A DNA stretch of 64,000 nt from Chrysoperla carnea (Eukaryota > Arthropoda > Insecta > Neuroptera > Chrysopidae). The position numbers and the translations under genes were made by a program. The notes beneath the pieces are model-generated. The model was given only the letters and a program-made list of their open reading frames with translations, did no database searches and was not told the DNA's origin. Below, in pieces: positions 3,280 through 45,589 of this stretch (within the stretch, counting starts at the first letter, position 1; each line of letters opens with the position of its first letter). The DNA lies in the NCBI RefSeq assembly GCF_905475395.1, contig NC_058340.1, positions 62,350,181-62,414,180 on the forward strand, written 5' to 3'.

Positions 3280-3470
3280 TTAAGGTAGTACGAGCATCAA
3301 GGGAAGTTTAGACTTGTGGTTGAAATAATTTGTACCTTATTTTCAACTGATGATGAATTTTGTTATAATTTCATTTTGTCAATTTATAACATAATTCACC
3401 ATTAAAATTGAAAATATATACATATTTTTTTTAAATTTGTGTCCCCACTTTCGTACTCATACATCCTTAA
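3280..3470. mobile_element. MITE family J, copy 1, TTAA-flanked
   Basis: TTAA at 3280-3283 is followed by GGTAGTACGAGCATCAAGG, and the right end (TCGTACTCATACATCC) is followed by TTAA at 3467-3470. The arms are imperfect inverted repeats. Related copies lie at 44762-44942 and 46079-46586. Flanking TTAA is typical of piggyBac-type insertions, but the inner ends do not match a classical piggyBac terminus, so the assignment is an inference. Confidence 0.6.
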
Positions 3471-7493: not shown

Positions 7494-9649
7494 TTTTTTT
7501 TTTTTTTTTTATCCTAATATTCTATTATTAGTTCCTAAAGGAACTATAAATAGGTCTGATGAATAGATAACATGAACGGCAACTACCCAGTGATAGTCAC
7601 CTAATCGAATTTATAGTATGTGAACTATAATTAAAACTATTTACGTAAATCTAAATCTTAAATCTAGAACACTTTGTCTATTTAGTCTATTTACTCTTTC
7701 ACTATTGTCTAAGAGATTTATTACTTCAACATTTGGGTGCCTTTCAAGGCGAGTCAAGTAACTTTCACTGAACCGCGTAATTTCTTCGCGCACTGTGGGC
7801 ACTTCAAGACTACGGTGAATGTCGTCATTACGCACGTACCAGGGAGATTCACTAATTGTTCGTAACACTTTTGATTGAAACCGTTGAATAATTTCGATGT
7901 TACTGTTGCTAGCAGTTCCCCATACTTGAATCCCATAAGTCCACACAGGTTTTAAAATTGTTTTATACACTAGCACTTTATTGTCTAATGATAACTTAGA
8001 TTTATGACCTAACAGCCAGTAAAGTTTCGAAAATTTTAAATTTAATTGTTTTCTCTTGGGCCAGATGTGTTTGCGCCAAGTTAGCCTTCTGTCTAAGTGA
8101 ATTCCCAAGTATTTCACTTCGTTTGCCTGTGGAAAACTGACATTGTTCATTTTTACAGCTGGACAAGTTTCCCTTCTTAAAGAGAATGTTACTTGAACTG
8201 ATTTTTGTTCATTTACTTGAATACGCCACTTTTGTAACCAGTTTTGTATTTTATTTATACTATTTTGTAGTCTTTGTGAAGCTACATTTGGGTCCACGTC
8301 TGTGGATAATATTGCAGTATCATCTGCAAAAGTAGCTATGGTATTTTTTCCGTCGGCTGGTAAGTCCGCGGTATATATCAAGTAGAGAGTTGGGCCCAAA
8401 ACGCTGCCCTGTGGTACGCCAGATTGAATAGGAAACAAGTCAGATAACTCTTCTTGAACTTTGACCTGAAAATGCCGATCTTCTAGATAAGATTTCAAAA
8501 TACAATAATATGTACTCGGAAGATGTTGTTTTAATTTGTAAAGTAAGCCAGGGTGCCATACTTTATCGAACGCCTTACTGACGTCAAGAAATGAAGCTGT
8601 ACAATATTTTTTTTCTTGAAAGCTTTTGTTTATTGTGTTAACTATTCGATGCACTTGTTCTATAGTTGAATGTTTCTCACGGAACCCAAATTGGTGGTCT
8701 GGTATGATCTGCGACTCATTCAGTATAATCTTTAATTTTTGTAGAAATAATTTCTCAAAGAGTTTAGATAGTGTTGGTAATAAACTGATAGGTCGATATG
8801 ATTTGACTTCGTTGATTGGCTTTCCTGGTTTTGGAATTAGAATTATTTGTGATATTTTCCAAGGACATGGAAAATAGCCCAGTCTCAAAATCGCATTGAA
8901 AATATTACGAATCATGATTATCCCATTATTTGATAACTCATTTAAAATTCTAGCTGTTATAAGATCAAAACCTGGTGATTTTTTTGGGTTTAGTGTTTTA
9001 ATTACCGCACTTATTTCGTTTAGAGAAAAAGCCTCTATTGGTGGGGATAATTGTAGTGGAGCACTCAAGAACTGATCAATTTCTTCGTCGGGTGCATCTT
9101 GTGAATTGGAAAATGTATCTTTCAATTCTTGAGCAAAAAGATCAGCTTTTTCTTTGTTGCTCCTTGCCCATGAACGATCTTGATTTCTTAAGGGTGGAAG
9201 AGCTTGTTGCGGTTGGTTGCAACGTTTTGTAGCTTTCCAAAGTGAGTAATCCGTCGCTTCTGTTGGAGATAGGTTTTCTAGATAGTCTTGAATACAATTT
9301 TCTTTTAGTTTTTCAAGTAAGCGTTTTAAATTTTGTGACGCTTTGTTGAAGCTGTTTTTGTCATTTGGAAATCTTGTTTGCTGCCAGATTCTTCTTAATC
9401 TGCGCTTTTCTGAGATAAGCTGCCTAACGTTTTGTGGGAGTAAACTTTTAGATTTAAGGCTTTTAATGCCAGGGGTGGATTCTCTGGCTGCTTTTTGGAT
9501 AGTTATTGTGATTTTTTGTACAGCTAAGTCAATATCCTCTTCTGATTTTAACAGCATTTTTGGATTTAGGTTATTATCGAAATGCCATCGAAAATAGTCC
9601 CAGTCTGTGTGACGGTTAGTTAAAGACGCGGCACCTCCTTTTTGAATAA
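7494..9649 (-). mobile_element. 5'-truncated Jockey-like non-LTR retrotransposon with poly(A) and 12-bp TSD
   Basis: The minus-strand element carries one reverse-transcriptase ORF, a short 3' UTR and a poly(A) tract (seen as a T run at about 7494-7510). The 12-bp word GCTGAGGTATTT flanks it on both sides (7485-7496 and 9650-9661), which is a target-site duplication; its last Ts merge with the tail. The 5' end is missing: the endonuclease region expected upstream of the reverse transcriptase in Jockey-type ORF2 is absent. An undamaged ORF with an intact TSD points to a recent insertion. Confidence 0.92.
7641..9647 (-). CDS. Reverse transcriptase ORF (Jockey-like ORF2, 5'-truncated)
   Basis: An open frame of about 668 codons runs from the truncation point to a stop at 7641; the first internal Met is at 9557. 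It encodes the C-terminal part of a LINE ORF2. Recognisable reverse-transcriptase motifs in order are ILIPKPGK and SYRPISLLPTLSK, FGFREKHST, the first catalytic block with SFLDVSKAFDKVWH, the GVPQGSVLGP block, and the catalytic ATFADDTAI (the FADD box). The thumb and C-terminal region include KYLGIHLDRRLTWRKHI and KTILKPVWTYGIQVWG, both typical of the Jockey clade. Its product would copy LINE RNA into DNA at a nicked chromosomal target. The N-terminal linker (TNRHTDWDYF) that normally follows the endonuclease is present, but the endonuclease itself is not, so this copy cannot mobilise itself. No frameshifts or stops are seen. Confidence 0.93.
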   Translation of the reverse strand: MQKGGAASLTNRHTDWDYFRWHFDNNLNPKMLLKSEEDIDLAVQKITITIQKAARESTPGIKSLKSKSLLPQNVRQLISEKRRLRRIWQQTRFPNDKNSFNKASQNLKRLLEKLKENCIQDYLENLSPTEATDYSLWKATKRCNQPQQALPPLRNQDRSWARSNKEKADLFAQELKDTFSNSQDAPDEEIDQFLSAPLQLSPPIEAFSLNEISAVIKTLNPKKSPGFDLITARILNELSNNGIIMIRNIFNAILRLGYFPCPWKISQIILIPKPGKPINEVKSYRPISLLPTLSKLFEKLFLQKLKIILNESQIIPDHQFGFREKHSTIEQVHRIVNTINKSFQEKKYCTASFLDVSKAFDKVWHPGLLYKLKQHLPSTYYCILKSYLEDRHFQVKVQEELSDLFPIQSGVPQGSVLGPTLYLIYTADLPADGKNTIATFADDTAILSTDVDPNVASQRLQNSINKIQNWLQKWRIQVNEQKSVQVTFSLRRETCPAVKMNNVSFPQANEVKYLGIHLDRRLTWRKHIWPKRKQLNLKFSKLYWLLGHKSKLSLDNKVLVYKTILKPVWTYGIQVWGTASNSNIEIIQRFQSKVLRTISESPWYVRNDDIHRSLEVPTVREEITRFSESYLTRLERHPNVEVINLLDNSERVNRLNRQSVLDLRFRFT

Positions 9650-9840
9650 GCTGAGGTATTTAAACAGTAAAAAAAAACTGGGTTTATAGCCTTACTTATG
9701 TGTACGTATATCATGGGTACTCAGCCAATAATTTTTGATTTGAATGCTGGGATAGAACAAGTCTCTCCTTATATAACTATCATTATTATCGAACACACCA
9801 TTTATTTTTGAGAATTTAAATATTCTCAATATCCAATATA

Positions 9841-17799: not shown

Positions 17800-18775
17800 A
17801 CGAAAAGATAGGCGATGCTCATAACTATAAAGTCATTGGGTTTATGTAACACCTACGACCGCATAAAAATTTGTATTTAAATTATTCTGTACACTCAATT
17901 AGTATCAAATAAAGTTTACACATTTATGGGGTATGAAAATAAATCATATACACATATGTGTGTCTGCAGTGTGCTACCTTTTGACTTGTGGCATCCGCTT
18001 AAAGGCAGTATAATAACCTTAACCCAAACACAATGTTTATTTTATTTTATCATCTATACAGGATGATACATAGGCCAGGGAAAAATTTTTGACACAAGAG
18101 ATCAAAAAAATTTGTAGCGCTGGAGCTACGCTAGCTAAGCGAATTTTCTCAGAGATTGAAAAAAATATCAAATTTTTCTTAAAATCGATCATTATTGACT
18201 GATCAAAAAATATTTTGAAAAAATTCCAAATTTCGTGTTTTGTGCAAGCCCCTACCCCTCTTGTTTATCTGTCGATTTCCAATTTTCCAAAAAAGTTTAC
18301 AGACACATAAATGTATATATACATATATATATAACTTTTAACGATGGTCATTTTTGACATCTTTTAGGCAGAATCGATGAACATTTGATCAAATTTTTTC
18401 AAAATTCCTTCATTAGTACAAAAGCATCAGCCCCGTTTCCTTCGGCAATTCGCTAATAATAATAACGACGATTGATTCGAATGACCTCAAAACTAAAATT
18501 TTTACAGTTTAATATCTTTTCTAGTGTCAGTGACACTAGAGATTTTTGTGCTTTATCACCACCTATTGGTACATATTGTTATTCTGCAATTCTGAAAAAA
18601 TATTCTGAGTGTGCAGTTTTGGTTTTATGTCTTATGACCATTTTTGTATTGTTTTGTATTCTAAGTTCATTTTTTTTAACAACATGAGAGTGGTAGTTTT
18701 CAAAATAAGAAAAAGTTTACGTGAAACTTTACATTTCAAAGTAAAATTTAAAATAACTCTGTATTCATAATAGAG
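17800..18775. other. Intergenic sequence, nothing firm
   Basis: A possible mariner-like end (CTATACAGGATGATACATAG) lies near 18055 without a partner. The 71-codon frame at 18472-18687 has no recognisable feature. Confidence 0.4.
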
Positions 18776-18924
18776 CAAGAGCCCGCTTCGGCCAGACGCA
18801 CATCATTTCATAAAACCCTAAAGTTTATCTGCGCACGTCACCAACACAGGTAAGAACGATGAGCGACTATGTAGTTTAGGTAGTGGTTACCTTGGCAGGT
18901 AACAGGTAACAAAGGTGTAAAAAA

Positions 18925-19494
18925 CAGCACCTCAAGTACATTAAGACATAAAGCTCTATTTTTTTACATTTTCTTCAGAATAATATTTAAAATGACGTCA
19001 TCCATTGCCAGACACTTAGTATAGTTTCAACCCCCTGCCAGACACCCCCAAACTCTAAAAAATTGTGATTACACTTACATTATAGTATAAAAGCTGAATT
19101 TTATATATGTTTCTTGGGGGGCTATGAAAAGAAGTTACCCCAGTAGCCAGACAGTTTTCAAGGTTTTTTCCATCTTGCCAGAGGCCTTGAGAGTCCGCCG
19201 TCGGTGTAGCAGCACCTCAAGTACATTAAGATATAAAGCTCTATTTTTTTACATTTTCTTCAGAATAATATTTAAAATGACGTCATCCATTGCCGTACAC
19301 TTAGTATAGTTTCAACCCCCTGCCGGACACCCCCAAACTCTAAAAAATTGTGATTACACTTACATTATAGTATAAAAGCTGAATTTTATATATGTTTCTT
19401 GGGGGGCTATGAAAAGAAGTTACCCCAATAGCCGGACAGTTTTCAAGGTTTTTTCCATCTTGCCAGAGGCCTTGAGAGTCCGCCGTCGGTGTAG
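18925..19494 (+). repeat. Left-arm tandem array: two 285-bp units
   Basis: CAGCACCTCAAGTACATTAA starts at 18925, 19210 and again (partial third unit) at 19495, giving an exact 285-bp period. The outer unit has GCCAGAC at 19007, 19037 and 19146. The inner unit has GCCGTAC at 19292 and GCCGGAC at 19322 and 19431. Confidence 0.92.
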
Positions 19495-20290: not shown

Positions 20291-20857
20291 CACCGACGGC
20301 GGACTCTCAAGGCCTCTGGCAAGATGGAAAAAACCTTGAAAACTGTCCGGCTACTGGGGTAACTTCTTTTCATAGCCCCCCAAGAAACATATATAAAATT
20401 CAGCTTTTATACTATAATGTAAGTGTAATCACAATTTTTTAGAGTTTGGGGGTGTCCGGCAGGGGGTTGAAACTATACTAAGTGTCCGGCAATGGATGAC
20501 GTCATTTTAAATATTATTCTGAAGAAAATGTAAAAAAATAGAGCTTTATATCTTAATGTACTTGAGGTGCTGCTACACCGACGGCGGACTCTCAAGGCCT
20601 CTGGCAAGATGGAAAAAACCTTGAAAACTGTCTGGCTACTGGGGTAACTTCTTTTCATAGCCCCCCAAGAAACATATATAAAATTCAGCTTTTATACTAT
20701 AATGTAAGTGTAATCACAATTTTTTAGAGTTTGGGGGTGTCTGGCAGGGGGTTGAAACTATACTAGGTGTCTGGCAATGGATGACGTCATTTAAAATATT
20801 ACTCTGAAGAAAATGTAAAAAAATAGAGCTTTATGTCTTAATGTACTTGAGGTGCTG
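20291..20857 (-). repeat. Right-arm tandem array: two 285-bp units (inverted)
   Basis: Reverse complement of the left array; unit boundaries at 20572 and 20857 are 285 bp apart. The inner unit carries GTCCGGC at 20345, 20454 and 20484; the outer unit carries GTCTGGC at 20630, 20739 and 20769. Confidence 0.92.
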
Positions 20858-21006
20858 TTTTTTACACCTTTGTTACCTGTTACCTGCCAAGGTAACCACT
20901 ACCTAAACTACATAGTCGCTCATCGTTCTTACCTGTGTTGGTGACGTGCGCAGATAAACTTTAGGGTTTTATGAAATGATGTGCGTCTGGCCGAAGCGGG
21001 CTCTTG

Positions 21007-22560
21007 GACTATAAAGTCTCAGCAATTTTTTGAGCTCATTTTAAGCTATTTTGTCCTAAAATTTTTAAGGGCATAAGCGAAATACAAATATGTTAAATTA
21101 TTATGATGCTCCACTCAAAATTTTCCTGGTGATGTTTGTATTTTATTTGTTTTTGTTCTGGCTATTTTTTGATTTGGTAATACTTGGAGGTCAAATAAAA
21201 ATTCGTAAAAATTAATGAAATATCTTTTATAAATGAAATAATTCTGGTCTGGAAAAAAAAGTTTTTAATTCACGAAAAAAAAATTTTTTTCAGAAAAGAT
21301 ATTCACAACATTTCTTTTCACTTCATCACTTCTTAAATAAAATTTAACACTCGGCTATAGATATGTTACACACAGAGAAAAAAATATTCGTATACACCAT
21401 TACACATATTAACTTTTTACGTAATATAGGCAGAACACGTTGTGCGTAGTGATAAAAAAACAAAGATCGTCAGCTATGTAGTCAAACATGCATAAAATAT
21501 TAGGATGCAGAAACAAAGGTTTTTCAAAGGAATAATGAATGGTATAGTGGATTGGAGATATACTTATAAATGATCAATGAACAAATTTTGGGGACACTAA
21601 ATAATAAAGAACGAAGTACGAAGAAAAATTTTAACAAGCAGAAAATTATTATATCACAGAATCCTTAGGATGTATGAGCATAACAGCAATGTTTGATTTA
21701 AAGGCTCTAAAATTTCTTTATAGGTAGACTTTTACTCAAATATGTGGTTAAAATTTCAGCTTAGGTATCCATACAAATTTTTAAGAAAAAAAATTATTGA
21801 AAATCCCAAAACTTTTTAGAAGTGAATAAGATGAAAAAAAAAAGAAGATATATAAGTGCTGCCTTATAAGATGAAAATCTTTGTCATTTCGATCGGAATT
21901 ATTACAAGGGAGAGGGCCTGATTTTTTTTTTGTACGTTAATGAAACGCAAAACTCAACTTTTGAACTTTTTTGCCGTAACCAAACAGTTTATTTATTTGA
22001 AATGTTTAAAAATAATATATATACATATATATAATATTGGTCTAGTTGATATTTTTTATTTCAATCATTCCTGAGGGATTTCTTATTTTCAGTACATTTT
22101 ACAGTTAAATTGTTTCACAGTTTTTAGTCCCAAGTGTACCGGCTATTTAATTGATTACAAATTTTTATAAATTTTGTTATTATTTTAAAAATGTTGGCTT
22201 AAAATTTTTATTTTCAAATCATCAACATTAATTAAAGCAATTTTTTGATAAGGATATTACGAAGCACACAAAGCACTCCACTTTTAGCAGCTAAATATTT
22301 TATTTGTGGAAAGGCCTTTTTTAGCACCCTTTACGCTTATTTAAATAATAAAAAAATTGTTAGATTTCTATATGGTATTAATTTTTTTGAACCACTAGGT
22401 ATTTTATAATAAATGCTTTTTTTCGGAAATTAATCATAAAAAATTGTCTCTTCTTTAAAATAAAAACAACCAGAATAATTGATTTGAATCTTGTTTTAAA
22501 AGATTCAAATAATTTACCAATTATCCATTCCTGTTTGGAAATGAAACATTCCATTTTAAG
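21007..22560. other. AT-rich intergenic sequence
   Basis: No gene or repeat end recognised apart from simple A/T tracts such as the (AT)-rich stretch near 22016-22034. Confidence 0.5.
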
Positions 22561-28958: not shown

Positions 28959-28993
28959 ATGCAATACGTATAATGACGTTGTGTAGCACGTGA
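28959..28993 (+). promoter_or_regulatory. Exon start with two upstream ORFs; TGATG stop-start overlap
   Basis: A splice acceptor (TTCTGCTTACAG) ends at 28958. The exon opens with ATG at 28959 that starts a four-residue ORF (MQYV, stop at 28971-28973). A second ATG at 28973 opens a six-residue ORF (MTLCST) whose TGA stop (28991-28993) shares its A with the main ATG at 28993. Such an arrangement is compatible with termination-reinitiation or repression by upstream ORFs; leaky scanning is also possible. Confidence 0.6.
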
Positions 28994-30897
28994 TGCACGG
29001 TACTCGTGGTGGAGGTGTTGGTGTTGGTGGTGGTGGTATGGGTGTTGTGACCACTCCTAATAGTAATGGCGGTCGAACGATACCAACATCAGTGACATCA
29101 TCATCGCTATCTTCAAAATCACAATCATCAGTAACACAATCACCATTAAGTACAACAACAATTAGCGCAAATGAATTAATCAAACGTGAATTTTATGCAA
29201 CTTATGACGTAATGACTGGTATACGAATTGCAGCGACATTGGGAGGCTTCTTTGGCTTAGTTGTAATATTAGTTGTATATAAATCAAAATCAAAAACTGA
29301 GAAAGCGCTCAATGATCCATATCTGGCAGCTGTGGCAGCTGAAGCCGTTGCAGAAGCTGAAGCTGATTTACAAGAGGAAGAGATGGCGTTACAAGCAGCA
29401 TTAGAAGCTACTGCAGCATGGTCGTGTAATCCACGTGCATCACGTACCGCACGCCAAAGTTTAGGTAATATGAGTGCACCAACAATGTGGGCACATAGTC
29501 CACGATTCTCATCAGTCGGAGGTGGCTATGCAAATTTACTAACACCACCAACTCGTGCACAAACATACGGACCTAAAAGTTTACCAGGCTCAGCTTTACG
29601 ATTTCATACACAACCATCGTGTAAGGAACTAGATGATGATGATGACGATGACGACGATGCTGACCATGATCGAGGAGGTGGTGCGGATGATGATGCGTTT
29701 GATGAATTCGACGATGATTTTCAGTTTTTAAATGTAAATAAACGTAATTACCGTAGATGTAGCAACATAACATGTTCTAGTTCTGATAGTAGTTATCTAG
29801 AAAGGCGTGGCAGTGCTGTTGTTGGTTTGCCTCCACCCCCGGCATTACCAACGAGTAGACGACGAAGTTCTGCTGAAAAATGTTGGGATTTTTATTATCC
29901 AATTGACATTCAAGTAATTCAACCAACACCTGATATGTCACCAAGTAGTAGTGAACGATGTGTATTATATGATACTGTCCCGGGTGGTGGAGCTATGACC
30001 GATGTAAATCGATTACAAGCTGCAAATTTAACTGTGACAGGATCATCATCATCTGGTTTAGTGGTTCCTTCACGTTTAGCGCCTTTGGCTACAATTAGTA
30101 GTTGTGCTAGTTCAGTGTTAGGTACAGAATTAGATCAACGATCCGAACTTGGATCGGATTCTGTATTTATGGACGATGATAATTATTGCTATGATACAGA
30201 TGATGAAGTTACACAATTTAGTACTGATAGTAGCGAAGAGAATTTAATAACAACAGATTTACAATTGCAAGAATATAGTGGTCGACAATTACAACCATCG
30301 TTAAAACGACAACATTCTTGGAAACGGCGTGCATCAGCTCCATTACAACGACGAAAAAGTATTACACAGCAACAACAGCAACGTTTAATGAAAAATGCAG
30401 AATCAATAAATTTATTAAATAATGGTAGATCTGATTCATTAAAATTAATATCAAAATCATCAGAAAATATTCAATTACGATTATCATCAACGCGACGTTT
30501 AAATACAAACTCTGGAAATTTATTAAATCGTATTGCTGAAACAAGTTTATTAAATAATCGTGTCGCCGTTGCCACAGTTAGTAACAACGATTTTAAGCCT
30601 AATACATCTATTACAACACCTGTCAAAATAGCTCAAAGACCACCTTATCCTTTACCCTCCCAATGTACAATTGATGCATCATCCACAAATGTAAGTGATA
30701 CATCAACATTAGTTGCAACTACTTCACATTTAAGTGATGATAATACAACACAATCGTGTAGTTTAAATATGCCGCCAACACTTTATATGGTGAGTAGTCC
30801 ATCGACTACGTCATCGCAACAAAAGATGAATAAAAATAAAAAATCTAGTTCATTAGTAAATATTGAATTAGGTGCATCACAAGAGACTTTATTCTAA
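28993..30897 (+). CDS. Single-pass membrane protein with long Ser/Asp-rich tail, 634 aa, family not named
   Basis: The main start is ATG 28993; the frame upstream is closed by a stop at 28984, and the exon follows an acceptor at 28957-28958. In order: a Gly/Val- then Ser/Thr-rich N-terminus (1-60); a conserved-looking ELIKREFYATYDVMTG lead-in (61-76); one transmembrane segment (about 77-95) followed by KSKSK; an Ala/Glu-rich helical stretch (110-142); an Asp run (about 214-245, from GAT/GAC codons); a block around CWDFYYPIDIQVIQPTPD (297-314); an acidic SDSVFMDDDNYCYDTDDE segment (388-405); a basic RQHSWKRRASAP region with a glutamine run (439-463); and a C-terminus ETLF that fits a class I PDZ ligand. 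There is no signal peptide, and positive charge after the membrane segment suggests N-outside with a cytoplasmic tail. I do not recognise the family; a scaffold or signalling role is only inference. A MITE lies 30 bp after the stop. Confidence 0.88.
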   Translation: MHGTRGGGVGVGGGGMGVVTTPNSNGGRTIPTSVTSSSLSSKSQSSVTQSPLSTTTISANELIKREFYATYDVMTGIRIAATLGGFFGLVVILVVYKSKSKTEKALNDPYLAAVAAEAVAEAEADLQEEEMALQAALEATAAWSCNPRASRTARQSLGNMSAPTMWAHSPRFSSVGGGYANLLTPPTRAQTYGPKSLPGSALRFHTQPSCKELDDDDDDDDDADHDRGGGADDDAFDEFDDDFQFLNVNKRNYRRCSNITCSSSDSSYLERRGSAVVGLPPPPALPTSRRRSSAEKCWDFYYPIDIQVIQPTPDMSPSSSERCVLYDTVPGGGAMTDVNRLQAANLTVTGSSSSGLVVPSRLAPLATISSCASSVLGTELDQRSELGSDSVFMDDDNYCYDTDDEVTQFSTDSSEENLITTDLQLQEYSGRQLQPSLKRQHSWKRRASAPLQRRKSITQQQQQRLMKNAESINLLNNGRSDSLKLISKSSENIQLRLSSTRRLNTNSGNLLNRIAETSLLNNRVAVATVSNNDFKPNTSITTPVKIAQRPPYPLPSQCTIDASSTNVSDTSTLVATTSHLSDDNTTQSCSLNMPPTLYMVSSPSTTSSQQKMNKNKKSSSLVNIELGASQETLF

Positions 30898-39690: not shown

Positions 39691-40333
39691 AGATCTGCCA
39701 CTGTTAGTCAAAAAACTTACGAGGCTCACTTTTAGTAGGATGATGAAGAGATAAAATTTATGGTGTGAAGTGAGGAATATATAATTTTAAAAATAAAATA
39801 AGTAAAATTTATTTTATTATTTTTGCCTTATTTTGCAAAAGGCAAAAAATTATGCGGAATCTCACAGCTACTCACGAAATACAATCAATCGGGCGGGAAA
39901 TATATGTCGGGCTATAATGATATGCTTGTGCTTAAATTTGTACCAATATTTAGAGAGCTCCCTCCGTTCCTTGCTTACCTTACTTTGTCGATGATTTTGT
40001 GTCTAAATGAAATCTTCCAATAAGATATCCAGTAAAAAAACTAAAAAATTTGAACTGCTCTATAAATGAGCATTAAAACATTGAAAGAAACGAGAATATA
40101 AAAAACAAAAATATATTCTCTGAATTAAAATAATATAACATTAGTTAAAAATATATACATTTTGTAAATGTAAAACATACATTACATTGAAAAAAGCATT
40201 CTAGAACTTTCGAATTAATTAGATATTATAAATTTAAATATTTGGTTTTAATTGTGTTCAGTTACACAACGGTTATTTAACTTAATTATTTCTGATATGA
40301 AAAATATGATTATTAAACTTTTAACTATTCGAT

Positions 40334-40339
40334 TTTATT
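40334..40339 (-). terminator. Poly(A) signal AATAAA, ODF3-like copy 1
   Basis: AATAAA on the minus strand (TTTATT on +), about 72 nt beyond the exon 3b stop and 177 nt beyond the exon 3a stop. It could serve transcripts using either last exon. Confidence 0.5.
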
Positions 40340-40410
40340 ATCAGGCATTTTATTTCAAAAAAATTGCTTTTTATCTTCAAAAAAAAAATTCATAGTATGG
40401 GGGGTGAATT

Positions 40411-40470
40411 CTACGAGTGTGGTGAGTGTTTTATTCCAGAACTATGCACTGAAGGATAACCCATCACAAC
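40411..40470 (-). other. Alternative terminal exon 3b of ODF3-like copy 1 (degenerate)
   Basis: An acceptor (TTTTTGTCTAG) is followed by 19 codons ending SSGIKHSPHS and stop, in the phase that continues exon 2. The paralogue at 43909 uses the matching exon to encode DYPPAHSFGIKHSPYSWNY. Here the key SFG is SSG and the end is shortened, suggesting relaxed constraint. Confidence 0.6.
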
Positions 40471-40515
40471 CTAGACAAAAATTTAACACGTAAAAGTTTT
40501 AATAACGATATTTTT

Positions 40516-41655
40516 TTACGCATAAATATGAGAAAGGATATAATTACATTCAACGCTTTCTGGGACAGGATGAAATGGGAAAATGGCTCTGTGATTAGAA
40601 TGGCGAATACCAAAGGAAAAATCTGGATAGTAGGGTTTATTGAGGTAAACCTGTAAAAAACAATTTATAAATTTAATACTTAAAAGTCTTTTACACATTT
40701 TTTCATTTTACGTTTTCTGGAGCATAGTCACCAGGCCCAGGTTTTCTTGATATATCTTTAGGTAGTTCATAACGTTTACTCATTGTAAATGCAGGAGCAC
40801 GTTGTTTTACAAAATTATCTTTGGGAGAATATTTAGTTGGGTTAGGATTCTTCACCCGTTCATCGGTTACATCTTTATATCTTCCAGTTATTGTATAAGA
40901 TGGAGCTGCCCGTTTATTTCCTTCCTTGCATCTACCAATTGTTGATGGAATTGTATATAAATTTGGCCCAGGAGTATTACCATGTTTGCCTATCGATGGT
41001 CGTAAACCAATTGAATATTTTGGTGATGAATCCAATTTTTTTTCCGAATTTTCTGGCATATAATCACCAGGTGCTGGTGTTGTAAAGCTGCTCTTTTCTT
41101 TATTACGACAATGAATACTTAATGCTGGCGCCGTTGCTTTTCCTACTTAAAATAATAATAAGGTACATTAATTTATTTAACTCATTTAGGTATAATAATA
41201 AAAGTGAGCTATAAACTTGGTCACCTAGATTGATATTAGCTTTTCTTGTTTAATTCAGACCGTCAAGGCAAAAGTGGCCTATACATATGCATGGTGTCTT
41301 TTTTAAGTTGACTTATGCTTGAAATTCGATATATAAATCGAGTCAAGGAAAATGCTTCAAAAGAAATACGTTTCAAAGGCACACAAAAAAATTATCGATT
41401 AATCATAGAAATACCCTTTGCACTTAAGCCAGTCACATCATATTTTGATGGTCCAGGTCCAGTTGTATCGTATTTTTCTGAATGACGATTACCAAATGAA
41501 AATGCAGGTGCTCGATTAAGTTTTGATATAGGAAGCCTTGTTGTGCCAATTAATGATGGTAAAGCAATAAATGCTGGTCCTGGTGATGAACTCTCCGCAG
41601 CAATTGGTCCTCGCCGTTTTGTTGGCACCCATTGACGCTGTGTAAATCCACCCAT
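40516..41655 (-). CDS. SHIPPO/ODF3-like (CIMAP family) protein, copy 1
   Basis: Three exons: 41655-41415, 41142-40712 and 40650-40516 (3a). All introns are GT-AG, of 272 and 61 nt, with phases 1 and 0. The 268-residue product begins MGGFTQRQWVPTKRRGPI. It carries repeated SHIPPO-type P-G-P-x-x-Y plus APAFSFG-like units: RAPAFSFGNRH...TGPGPSKYDVTG; SPKYSIGLRP...NTPGPNLYTIP; AAPSYTITGRY...NPNPTKYSP; RAPAFTMSKRY...KPGPGDYAPE; and a last unit PDFSFGIRHSNH. Human ODF3 is about 254 residues, so the length is typical. Family members are microtubule-associated proteins of sperm tails and cilia; a testis role here is inference from the family. One repeat has lost its PGP (PNP), unlike the usual form. 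Tandem paralogue of the gene at 43909-45589. Confidence 0.9.
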
Positions 41656-41705
41656 TATTATAACTGGATAATAAATACCGAATCTGTTGAATAGAAATTT
41701 TCGAT

Positions 41706-43517
41706 AACCATAAAAAATGATGAAATAATAAAAATCTATGATTTTCTTCGAATATGTTGTATTATTAGGTAAGCATTCAATTTTTTTAAATTGTCAAAAT
41801 AATATATTCTCAAATAGTCTAAGAGCAATTAGACCAAAAACCTACATTCTTTTACAACCTTCAGCAATTTTTAAGACACTTCTTATTAAAGTGGGTGTAT
41901 ATTAAGAGTTTAAACCAAATATCAATAATAATCAAAGGAATTATTATATTTGTTCTTATTGGTGTCAGTAATCCCTTTCTTAACGGTATCTTCGATAAAA
42001 TTATTTGAAAACCTTTAAAACGGCTTAATTATTCACTAGAGTGATACTCACCCGCTTAGCTGGGTTTAAAAGTAAAGATTGATAAAGATTGTTCTCGCTT
42101 ATCCCCTTTTTATAACACTCGAAATAATGGTGGTAAGGATTGTTTTACACAGGTAAAATATATGTATGGTTTTCTAATTTTCTAAATGTATAATAGTAAT
42201 TATTCATTGAGTATATCAGAGAAGATGGCCGTGAAATATTTTATATTGACTATTTTTACAGAAATCTGTATTTTATGGTAATGTCAAATTAAATTAATTT
42301 TTAAATTTTTTTTAATTTTTTTATTAATTTATCTTTATAAATTATATCTCATGTGTTATTTTGATATATCGGCTATATTTCTGTACAGTTTCATTAAAAA
42401 CCATTCGCTAGTTTTAGCGTGAAAGCTAACAAACAAACAAACAAACAAACATGCTTACTTTCGCACTTATAATATATAGAGATGCCAATCAATATTTTAG
42501 CAAATTTAATCATAATAAACTTACCAGTAAATCTAAAAATCCTTAACACTGTACTACTATCACCTTACGTTCATCAGCAACATGCTTATTAATAAATCTA
42601 TGAACAGACTACCAAGTTTTTTGATCGGTACGTAATGTAATTTTTCCTTTAATACTATTTTACTATAATTTCGGAATAAATAACAATTTAAAAAAAAGCA
42701 CCATAAGCTTTATAGTGACTATACTTTGTAATAAGTTGGTTTGTTCTGATATCTCTTCGACTTTTTTGGGGGGAGTTTTGCATCTGAAAGTAAATGGTTA
42801 ACTATTTGGGTATTGTTGTACTGAGGAAAGGAAATCTGGAAAAATTTCTTTAAATCGATCCTATCTAGTTAACACTGAAAATAGACCATTCTTAAATCTA
42901 TTCTATACGGTCTGTATATGCGAAATCCATGCATATAATTACTAATTTACTGACTAGTTCACAGATTATTGTGTAACCAGGTTTCTCAATACTAGCAGTA
43001 ATTTAAAATTTTGCATCAATGTTTCTTTTATAGTCCAGAAGATGTGCAAGAAGTAACGTTTCGAGAAATTCATCTTGTTTAAAAAGTTTTTCTCAAAAAT
43101 TTCCTGGCGACAATACGTATAATATATACATCTTAGATAAAAGGCACTAAAAAAAGTTTCATGTATTTTTTTCAACATTAATACGAAGTTACTTCAATAA
43201 AATTTTAATTTCTTGGAGTGAAAATATTTGTTAAAAAAACTTTTTTGTAGTAACTTTTTAGCTCTTCAAATCGATTTTCTAAAAATATTTTCATACTTTA
43301 CATATTATGTAGATGTACATGCAATTAAAGCTTTTCAGAACAGAAAAGCTATGTCTGTAGTTAGTAAGCCGCAACCTTTAAGTTGAAAACATTTTTTTTA
43401 ATCCACTCTTCAAACAGGATATATTTTCATTACTTTATGGTTGTTTGTCCTTTTTGAGAGGTGAAAACCTCTTCCAGAATAGTTGTAGAAATAAAAAGAA
43501 AAACAATAATTACAGGA
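41706..43517. other. Spacer between the duplicated ODF3-like genes
   Basis: No gene seen. It holds a probable LINE/SINE 3' end at 42395-42482. Homology between the two gene copies stops at about 41705 on one side and 43518 on the other. Confidence 0.5.
42395..42482 (+). repeat. Retroposon-like 3' end with (AAAC)n
   Basis: GCTAGTTTTAGCGTGAAAGC then six AAAC units then ATGCTTACTTTCGCACTTAT. Sequence of this form commonly ends insect non-LTR retroposons. A diverged relative (ACAGACATACTTTCGCATTC) is at about 49340-49375. Confidence 0.5.
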
Positions 43518-43829
43518 TTTGAACTGAGCTGTAAAATGTAGGAGTCTATATAAAGGGTCATAGAACATTAAAAGAAATAAACTAGAACATGAAAAAGCAA
43601 AAATATATTCTCTGAATTAAATAACATTAGTTTAAAATATACCTACATTTTATAAATGTAAAATATATATTATATTGAAAAAAGCATTCTAGAACTTTCG
43701 AACTAGATTTTAAAAATCTAAATAATTGGTTTTTATTGTGTTTGCTTCACATGGTTATTTAACTTAATTATTTCTCTGTGAAAAATCTGATAATAATTAA
43801 CCTTTTCTTCATAATTAAGCTCCTAATAG

Positions 43830-43835
43830 TTTATT
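43830..43835 (-). terminator. Poly(A) signal AATAAA, ODF3-like copy 2
   Basis: AATAAA on the minus strand, about 75 nt downstream of the stop codon at 43909. Confidence 0.5.
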
Positions 43836-43908
43836 GCATGTTCCATTGGCTGAATGTAATTTTGACACGTTATTTCAAAAATTTGTTTTTATCTTCTAAT
43901 ATAAATTA

Positions 43909-45589
43909 TTAGTAATTCCACGAGTATGGTGAGTGTTTTATTCCAAAACTATGCGCTGGAGGATAATCCAGTACAACCTAAAAAAAAAAAAAATTAGAAC
44001 GTAAATTTTTGATAACGTAGGTACCAAATTCTTTATTTCTAATAGATTAAAAGTTTTACAGCTTTGAACTGGGACAGGAATATGGAAAAATAGTCCCAAG
44101 AAAATGGAAAAATACGATTTTTAACATGTATTTTATGCTTTTTTCGTTATACCTTTTCTGGAGCATATTCACCAGGTCCTGGTTTTCCCGATAAATCTCT
44201 AGGTGGTTCATAACGTTGACTAATTGTGAATGCTGGAGCGCGTTGTTTTATAAAACCATCTGTTGGATCATATGAACCTGCGCCAGGATTTTTTACACGT
44301 TCATCGGGTACATCTTTATGTCGTCCAGTTATTGTATAAGATGGAGCTGCTCGTTTATTGCCTTCTTTGCATCCACCAATTGTCGATGGAATTGTGTATA
44401 CATTTGGTGCTGGTGTATCACCATGCTTCTCTAACGATGGTCGTAATCCAATTGTATATTTGGGTGATGAATCCAATAATGCTTTTACAGATTTTTCTGG
44501 TGCATAATCACCAGGTGCTGGTGTTGTAAAACTGCTCATTTCCTTATTACGACTATGAATGCTTAATGATGGTGCCGTTGATTTTCCTACTTGAAATATA
44601 TACGCACGGTATTTATTTTGCTCAGTTTTGTTTAAATATATTTAAAGTGAGTTATAGTTGCGGCTTGTAATATTTGATAGACCTCGAGTGTGGTCGAGAT
44701 TGTTGAAGACTTTTGCGAAACAAGTTGCAAAACTTTATGAATATTTATTCATTTTTCTGACTTAAGGACGTACGAGCACCAAGGCAATATCGAAAAACAG
44801 ACCAAGGCGGAATATCGAAAAAATGTATTCTTATTTTTCGTCTACATTCATGAAGTTATAACAAAATTCATCATCAAAGTAGAAAATAAGGTACAAATAG
44901 TTTCAACTACAAGTCTAAACTTGCCTTGGCGCTCGTACTACCACAAAGCTTTGTTTTATTCGACTTTAAAAGATCGGACATTTTTTAAAGTAATTTTGTT
45001 TAAAAAAAAAGTTTGGGATAGTCGCAGCATTCTGAAAGCTGGATTCATACTTTTTGTATGCTATCTGAATGTATATCTTCAAAAGCTAAAGCTTTGTGTC
45101 TTTAACCCGAAGCTTCTATAAGAATAATCTGATGTCTGCCTTTCGGAAGTGGGGCTATTTCAAAAAAATTACTGAATTTGTTCCACATTTTGGGTGTTTT
45201 GGAGGACAAAATCACTTTTAATAGCAAAAGATGTAATAAATTAATCGAAATAACTGATATACGATTCATATCAATTGATTTTGATATGAAGTCCGTTGGA
45301 AATACGTCTATATGCAATTTTTTTAAATCTGTTAATAATAAAAATTACCCTTTGCACTTAAACCCGTCACGTCATATTGTGCTGGTCCCGGTCCAGTTGT
45401 ATCATCTTTGTCGGAATGACGATTACCAAATGAAAATGCTGGTGCTCGATTTAATTTTGATTGAGGAACATTCTTTGTGCCAATTAATGATGGTAAAGCA
45501 ACAAATGCTGGTCCTGGTGATGCACTCTCAGCAGCAATTGGTCCTCGACGTTTTGTTGGCACCCATTGACGTTGTGTAAATCCACCCAT
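43909..45589 (-). CDS. SHIPPO/ODF3-like (CIMAP family) protein, copy 2
   Basis: Three exons: 45589-45349, 44586-44153 and 43977-43909. Introns of 762 and 175 nt are GT-AG with phases 1 and 0, and the last acceptor sits behind a long T tract. The 247-residue product is close in length to ODF3 (about 254). Repeats in order: APAFSFGNRH...TGPGPAQYDVTG; APSLSIHSR...TPAPGDYAPEKS; SPKYTIGLRP...TPAPNVYTIPS; AAPSYTITGRH...NPGAGSYDP; RAPAFTISQRY...KPGPGEYAPEK; terminal AHSFGIKHSPY. Exon 1 is nearly identical to copy 1. Family role: structural microtubule-associated protein of sperm flagella. Intron 1 is enlarged by a MITE (44762-44942). The second intron keeps a remnant of the alternative exon 3a used by copy 1. 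Confidence 0.9.
44061..44097 (-). pseudogene. Remnant of exon 3a inside copy 2 intron 2
   Basis: The minus strand reads GGGACTATTTTTCCATATTC then CTGTCCCAG, matching the exon 3a segment of copy 1 (40554-40592; CATTTTCCCATTTCATCCTG then TCCCAG). The exon start, its acceptor and the SFGIRHS codons are missing. Confidence 0.6.
44762..44942. mobile_element. MITE family J, copy 2, in intron 1 of ODF3-like copy 2
   Basis: TTAA (44762-44765) then GGACGTACGAGCACCAAGG. The right end in reverse complement reads TGGTAGTACGAGCGCCAAGG then CAAGTTTAGACTTGTAGTTG, matching copy 1 at 3280. No TTAA remains on the right, so that end is slightly damaged. Confidence 0.7.

What the first reader, a model, noticed from the sequence alone, without database searches (positions are those of the whole stretch)
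40411..44153. Reciprocal loss of duplicated terminal exons in tandem ODF3-like genes
Copy 1 has two candidate last exons in the same phase: 3a (40516-40650, ends its SHIPPO unit with SFGIRHSNH) and 3b (40411-40470, SSGIKHSPHS). Their encoded starts are alike, so 3a and 3b look like an exon duplication giving alternative C-termini. Copy 2 has an intact 3b (SFGIKHSPY) but only a 37-bp scrap of 3a inside its intron. In copy 1, 3b has lost the SFG motif. Each paralogue thus seems to keep a different ending, a possible case of an alternatively spliced gene partitioning its isoforms after duplication.
Basis: partly seen in the sequence, partly recalled or inferred. Interest (0 to 1): 0.7.

Follow-up and report, generated by a model that had tools for sequence, protein, structure and literature searches.

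The report
Sperm-tail gene pair splitting two endings
Two neighbouring copies of an animal sperm-tail gene appear to have shared two alternative last exons; one copy has lost one of them through a small deletion, while in the other copy the second is wearing away, an instance of a known evolutionary pattern that still needs RNA evidence.

Summary
The anatomy is real. On the minus strand lie two tandem, open ODF3/CIMAP1-type (SHIPPO-repeat) genes; a search of the 559-Mb assembly found no third. Copy 1 has two same-phase candidate last exons, 3a and 3b; copy 2 has 3b and a 31-nt remnant of 3a. Refinements: (1) 3a is the canonical ending: against a profile of four outgroup C-termini it ranks first of 2,922 window ORFs (E 5e-9), copy-2 3b second (1e-5), while copy-1 3b is not significant (0.3). 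(2) One 66-nt gap accounts for the whole intron-length difference and takes the 3a acceptor and SFGIRHS codons from copy 2. (3) In copy 1, 3b is only eroded: acceptor and frame are intact, F-to-S and Y-to-H hit conserved sites, and 6 of 7 differences are replacements (not significant, p 0.24). So loss is one-sided so far, not fully reciprocal. Alternative splicing is inferred; no transcript or single-copy relative was available. Splitting of duplicated exons after gene duplication is documented (PMC9741552, passages). Verdict: a plausible, incomplete new member of a known kind.

The parts
41415..41655 (-). Copy 1 exon 1 (from ATG; 80 codons and one base)
40712..41142 (-). Copy 1 exon 2 (SHIPPO units; ends PEN, donor AAC|GTAAAA)
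40516..40650 (-). Copy 1 candidate last exon 3a, canonical ending (SFGIRHSNH)
40498..40503 (-). ATTAAA, candidate poly(A) signal of 3a (ATCAAA at the same place in copy 2)
   Evidence: consensus match only
40411..40470 (-). Copy 1 candidate last exon 3b, eroded (SSGIKHSPHS)
45349..45589 (-). Copy 2 exon 1
44153..44586 (-). Copy 2 exon 2 (ends PEK, donor AAG|GTATAA)
44061..44091 (-). Remnant of 3a in copy 2 intron 2; also a pyrimidine-rich acceptor-like site
43909..43977 (-). Copy 2 last exon 3b (SFGIKHSPYSWNY)

Best explanation
The single-copy ancestor was an ODF3/CIMAP1 sperm-axoneme gene whose last exon had been tandemly duplicated into 3a (canonical ending) and 3b (two residues shorter). 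Exon 2 could be joined to either acceptor, giving two C-terminal versions of the last SHIPPO-type unit: the near acceptor (61-nt intron), with the ATTAAA just after 3a, gives the canonical ending; the far acceptor, with the AATAAA beyond 3b, gives the short one. The gene then duplicated in tandem. Copy 2 lost about 66 nt covering the 3a acceptor and its conserved codons, so it can make only the 3b ending. Copy 1 keeps 3a and very likely uses it, while its 3b loses conserved residues under weak or no constraint. Shown here: the exon anatomy, the likeness of the endings to outgroups, the gap, the erosion, and constraint on exons 1-2 taken together (dN/dS 0.38). Inferred: that the gap is a deletion in copy 2, that both endings were made in the ancestor, that they differed in function, and that the split preserves both genes.
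For: 3a ranks first of 2922 ORFs against outgroup C-termini (5.1e-9), copy-2 3b second (1.2e-5), copy-1 3b not significant (0.3). Adding 3a to copy-1 exons 1-2 raises the 8iyj score from 108.4 to 135.4 bits; adding 3b to copy 2 raises it from 114.7 to 132.3. A single 66-nt gap gives 81 of 175 matches in intron 2 (1 of 3000 single-base shuffles as good; placements a few nt apart score 80-81) and falls on the 3a acceptor and SFGIRHS. ATTAAA after 3a in copy 1 is ATCAAA in copy 2. dN/dS over 224 aligned codons of exons 1-2 is 0.38 (bootstrap 0.23-0.62; 0 of 2000 at 1 or above). In 3b 6 of 7 differences in 19 codons are replacements; the two that outgroups polarise (F to S, Y to H) fell in copy 1. 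The copies differ most in the last 44 codons of exon 2: 21 of 102 nonsynonymous sites against 33 of 408 elsewhere, p 0.0009, block boundaries mine and uncorrected.
Against: No transcript. Copy-1 3b has no stop, frameshift or splice-site loss. The excess of replacements in 3b is not significant against exons 1-2 (Fisher p 0.24). The 3a remnant is short, and its score is matched by 46 of 2000 shuffles of the whole copy-1 intron. Y-to-H also occurs in 3a itself (HSNH). Copy 2 still has an AATAAA inside intron 2 at 44037, and copy 1 has further hexamers at 40677 and 40641, so the poly(A) argument is weak. Both exon-2 donors lack G at +5.
Confidence: 0.6

Rival explanations
1. One-sided replacement, not partition: 3a was the working ending and 3b a spare duplicate. 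Copy 2 lost 3a and fell back on 3b; in copy 1 3b is, as before, untranslated sequence behind 3a. No ancestral isoform pair was ever divided.
For: 3a is the canonical ending; 3b differs between the copies at about the pace of its 3' flank (6 of 43 nonsynonymous sites; flank 32 of 308 ungapped columns).
Against: 3b has no indel in 63 nt, whereas the flank after it has about 19 gaps in some 350-390 columns (hand counts from the alignments; chance about 0.05), and copy-2 3b keeps SFGIKHSPY, so 3b was probably coding before the duplication.
Confidence: 0.22
2. The 3a remnant is kept because it is a third 3' splice site or a pyrimidine-rich splicing element, giving copy 2 an alternative ending PEK-FKAVKLLIY or acting as a decoy for 3b.
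For: It is the best local match between the two introns and has 17 of 20 pyrimidines plus CAG in both copies; 1.3% of the 1354 YAG sites on that strand reach 16.
Against: The peptides read from it differ between the copies, and in copy 1 the same bases code within 3a.
Confidence: 0.1
3. Copy 1 is a gene in decline: a weak donor (AAC|GTAAAA) leads to intron retention and a protein ending PENVK, and the erosion of 3b is part of the decay.
For: Donor -1 base is C, not G, with K-to-N; residues where outgroups side with one copy favour copy 2 at 14 and copy 1 at 7 of 43 sites (p 0.19), BLOSUM 27 against 13 (p 0.04), in alignments made with copy 2 as query, which leans towards copy 2. 14% of bootstraps reach the dN/dS of 0.5 expected if one copy were neutral and the other fixed.
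Against: Full-length open frame, an in-frame codon indel, an intact 3a, and dN/dS 0.38.
Confidence: 0.12
4. 3a was gained by copy 1 after the gene duplication, by insertion or conversion from another ODF3 gene.
For: The 66-nt gap could in principle be an insertion in copy 1.
Against: No further ODF3 copy was found in the assembly as donor (which scores only its best candidates and used the copy-2 protein as query); part of 3a beyond the gap is shared with copy 2; the outgroups used end like 3a.
Confidence: 0.05

Closest known systems
Tandem duplicated exon substitution followed by gene duplication (CACNA1F/CACNA1S, FYN-family kinases; PMC9741552, passages seen, citing Abascal et al. 2015, not held)
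   Same: Homologous adjacent exons used instead of each other; after gene duplication each paralogue keeps one.
   Different: The cases named in the passages are vertebrate channels and kinases, some with expression data. Here it is a last exon in a tandem pair, one loss is incomplete and expression is unknown.
mitf paralogues of fish, 'differential degeneration of alternative exons' (Altschmied et al. 2002; title seen in the reference list of PMC5306129; paper not held)
   Same: By its title, alternative exons degenerate differently in duplicates.
   Different: Paper not read; no comparison of mechanism was possible.
SKI7/HBS1 in fungi (PMC3597508, abstract and outline seen)
   Same: Two proteins of one alternatively spliced gene are split between duplicates.
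   Different: There function was shown by complementation; here neither RNA nor function is known, and the two endings are homologous versions of one unit.
PpSerpin-1 and other insect serpins (PMC10513286, passages seen)
   Same: Alternative C-terminal exons in insects with rapid gain and loss, and higher dN/dS in alternative than in constitutive exons.
   Different: Many endings in an immune protein; here two endings in a sperm-tail protein.
ODF3/CIMAP1 family (PDB 8snb, 8otz, 8iyj)
   Same: Similarity over nearly the whole length (E down to 3.9e-41), SHIPPO repeats, same C-terminal unit.
   Different: A second, shorter candidate last exon; whether other members have one was not tested.

Membership tests
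ODF3/CIMAP1 (SHIPPO-repeat) family | SHIPPO (PF07004) repeats above the curated cut-off | tested here: met
   72.9 and 84.4 bits, cut-off 20, 5 stretches each; copy 1 also gave a sub-cut-off Nop10p match (22 bits, cut-off 27.2), taken as chance
ODF3/CIMAP1 (SHIPPO-repeat) family | Near full-length similarity to axonemal CIMAP1A chains | tested here: met
   E 3.9e-41 (copy 2) and 3.1e-38 (copy 1 with 3a)
ODF3/CIMAP1 (SHIPPO-repeat) family | Located on doublet microtubules of sperm or cilia | not testable with these tools
   Reported for mammalian CIMAPs (PMC11779644, passages seen)
Tandem duplicated exon substitution | Two adjacent exons, homologous, same phase | tested here: met
Tandem duplicated exon substitution | Both exons spliced alternatively into transcripts | not testable with these tools
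   no RNA data on hand
Subfunctionalised duplicates (DDC model) by exon loss | Both exons present before the gene duplication | tested here: met
   3b in both copies; 3a whole in copy 1 and as a collinear remnant in copy 2. The remnant is short, so met with reservation.
Subfunctionalised duplicates (DDC model) by exon loss | Complementary loss in the two copies | tested here: inconclusive
   3a broken in copy 2; 3b eroded but open and with an acceptor in copy 1
Subfunctionalised duplicates (DDC model) by exon loss | Sum of the functions equals that of the single-copy ancestor | not testable with these tools
   no relatives or functional data

The most novel reading that the evidence does not exclude
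The locus is caught in the middle of dividing an isoform pair of a sperm-axoneme protein: the choice of ending was set by competition between a near acceptor with its own poly(A) signal and a far acceptor, with a shared pyrimidine-rich acceptor between them still acting in both copies. Copy 2 fixed the short ending by one deletion; copy 1 keeps the canonical ending as 3b decays, while the last SHIPPO unit diverges fast, so that the two paralogues come to occupy different places on the sperm doublet.
Probability: 0.15. Interest if true: 0.5.

Novelty: new member of a known kind. Interest (0 to 1): 0.3.

Why it matters
If RNA bears it out, this is a small and still incomplete case of two gene copies dividing the alternative endings of one gene, in which the order of events (deletion first, erosion later) can be read from the DNA. 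It would add a sperm-tail structural protein and a last exon to cases that the passages I saw describe for channels, kinases and fungal genes, and it would let one ask what the C-terminal unit of ODF3/CIMAP1 does.

Tried and rejected
Relatives outside the window: the protein search of viral contigs gave 5 pattern matches and no relative. The family search PF07004 in the own genome found nothing at E 0.001 or better, but nothing rang in its 14 control genomes either, so it is not informative. The protein search found only these two copies (5 of 5 places). More distant paralogues and a DNA search for a third copy were asked for repeatedly and never answered. Genome contigs (bacteria and archaea) was not searched.

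Chance similarity for 3a: rejected. Gene conversion of the 3' part: the flank after 3b is about 10% diverged against 25% at synonymous sites, but my gapped alignment inflates identity, so I left it open. An alignment with very cheap gaps gave 77-90% identity of aligned columns in every region, intron 1 included, and was judged over-fitted; its identities are not used. The replacement excess in 3b was not significant (p 0.24).

Searches behind 'no print record seen of ODF3 last-exon duplication': listings only, in an open-licence library. Altschmied 2002, Abascal 2015 (Genome Biol Evol) and Lambert 2015 were not held. Passages of PMC4465641 and PMC13406575 were seen and are not relied on.

Full report
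What is there. On the minus strand at 40.4-41.7 kb and 43.9-45.6 kb lie two tandem genes of the ODF3/CIMAP1 (SHIPPO repeat) family. PF07004 scores 72.9 and 84.4 bits (cut-off 20), and both match solved axonemal chains over nearly their whole length: 8snb E 3.9e-41 for copy 2, 8iyj E 3.1e-38 for copy 1 with 3a (sea urchin and mouse by recall). The assembly has 559 Mb in 337 contigs; a search with the copy-2 protein returned five places, all of them exons of these two genes (only best candidates are scored, so distant paralogues may be missed). The window has 29.6% G+C. I could not name the species; that it is an animal, probably an insect, is my impression from gene content and was not tested.

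Exon structure. Exon 1 (80 codons and one base) has an AAGG|GTA donor in both copies, and exon 2 ends in phase 0 at PEN|GTAAAA in copy 1 and PEK|GTATAA in copy 2. Copy 1 has acceptors at 40650 (3a, 61-nt intron) and 40470 (3b, 241-nt intron); copy 2 has one at 43977 (3b, 175-nt intron). All three continue with a valine codon, as in PEKV of three of the four outgroup chains. Copy 1 has C where copy 2 has G before the donor, which also gives N for K; this should weaken the donor (recalled rule, not scored), and unspliced RNA would end PENVK.

3a is the canonical ending. I made a 21-column profile from four C-termini printed and ran it on the 2922 stop-to-stop ORFs of 15 residues or more in the window: 3a E 5.1e-9, copy-2 3b 1.2e-5, then the exon-1 frames of copy 2 and copy 1 (6e-4, 1.4e-3), and copy-1 3b at 0.3, below the inclusion threshold. 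Adding 3a to copy-1 exons 1-2 raises the 8iyj score by 27 bits, and adding 3b to copy 2 raises it by 18. 3a aligns with the mouse end VTLNKPCAPTVTFGIKHSDY without a gap; 3b is two residues shorter. 3a against copy-2 3b: 5 of 5000 shuffles reach the score.

Loss of 3a in copy 2. The best local match between the two introns is copy 1 40584-40555 with copy 2 44091-44061, score 30: reached in 3 of 2000 shuffles of the copy-2 intron, 4 of 2000 of 3a, and 46 of 2000 when the whole copy-1 intron was shuffled. It lies 84 and 83 nt before 3b, and the distances from the donor (127 and 61 nt) differ by 66, the whole difference in intron length. A one-gap model gives 81 of 175 matches, reached in 1 of 3000 single-base shuffles, and puts the gap near 40655-40590 (placements a few nt away score almost the same), taking out the 3a acceptor and the codons for VYLNK...SFGIRHSN. 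The ATTAAA 13 nt after the 3a stop is ATCAAA in copy 2; against this, copy 2 has another AATAAA inside intron 2 at 44037.

Erosion of 3b in copy 1. Over 19 codons there are six replacements and one silent difference (exons 1-2: 54 and 40), Fisher p 0.24. F to S and Y to H in copy 1 fall where the six sequences have F or L, and Y, F or (3a of copy 1) H. Acceptor and frame are kept and there is no indel, though the stop comes three codons earlier. The flank after 3b has about 19 gaps in some 350-390 columns (hand counts), so a chance of about 0.05 for none in 63 nt hints at past constraint. So 3b of copy 1 is fading, not gone.

Selection on the rest. dN/dS over 224 codons is 0.38 (bootstrap 0.23-0.62; 14% of 2000 samples at 0.5 or more; none at 1 or more). 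Of 43 differing residues, four outgroups side with copy 2 at 14, with copy 1 at 7 (p 0.19) and with neither at 22 (the alignments had copy 2 as query), so copy 1 may have changed more. The last 44 codons of exon 2 carry 21 replacements per 102 sites against 33 per 408 elsewhere (p 0.0009, not corrected for my choice of blocks), with no such difference at silent sites (p 1). Within exons 1-2 that is where the two proteins differ most.

A point against a simple relic. The remnant has 17 of 20 pyrimidines and CAG in both copies; 1.3% of 1354 YAG sites on the strand have 16 or more. It may be kept as a splice acceptor or decoy. The peptides read from it differ between the copies, so a conserved third ending is unlikely.

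Mechanism proposed. One donor, two acceptors, two poly(A) regions: the near acceptor and ATTAAA give the canonical ending, the far acceptor and a distal AATAAA (40354 or 40339 in copy 1; 43835 or 43737 in copy 2) give the short one. Copy 2 can only use the far one. Shown: exon anatomy, likeness to outgroup endings, the gap, erosion. Inferred: splicing, poly(A) use, the gap being a deletion, ancestral use of both endings, and any difference in function. [quoted passage not shown] this is inference.

What is known. PMC9741552 (passages) names three outcomes when a gene with tandem duplicated exons is duplicated: both kept in both, one copy losing one, or each keeping a different one, with CACNA1F/CACNA1S as a case of the last and the FYN-derived kinases each retaining one. 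The locus today is formally the second outcome, apparently moving towards the third. Marshall 2013 (PMC3597508, abstract and outline) shows division of splice forms in fungi; PMC10513286 (passages) shows fast turnover of alternative C-terminal exons in insect serpins. I saw no paper on ODF3 last-exon duplication in the listings, which cover an open-licence library only.

Verdict. Observation confirmed; interpretation partly supported; new member of a known kind; interest 0.3.

Noticed in passing
window 40060-40407 and 43560-43911: The 3' flank after 3b is about 10% diverged between the copies (32 of 308 ungapped columns) against 25% at exon synonymous sites: gene conversion, a constrained 3' UTR, or alignment bias.
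   Followed up: partly
window 40555-40584 and 44061-44091: The best local match between the two second introns is a strong pyrimidine tract with CAG in both copies, possibly a third or decoy acceptor.
   Followed up: partly
window 18770-19491 and 20291-21012: Inverted repeat with 722-nt arms, 99% complementary, 799 nt apart; perhaps a recent mobile element or foldback.
   Followed up: no
window 7644-9659 (-): 672-codon open frame with a reverse transcriptase domain (PF00078, E 1.5e-41); looks like a retroelement, probably LINE-type.
   Followed up: no
window 28987-30894 (+): 636-codon open frame with, by eye, a membrane-like segment and an alanine/glutamate-rich stretch; no Pfam match at E 0.01; probably a real gene.
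   Followed up: no
window 44850-44942 (copy 2 intron 1) and 3284-3374: A 93-nt stretch 89% alike at both places, a dispersed repeat that explains part of the longer intron 1 of copy 2.
   Followed up: no
window 44153-44284 and 40712-40843: The last 44 codons of exon 2 differ in protein about 2.5 times more than the rest of exons 1-2.
   Followed up: partly
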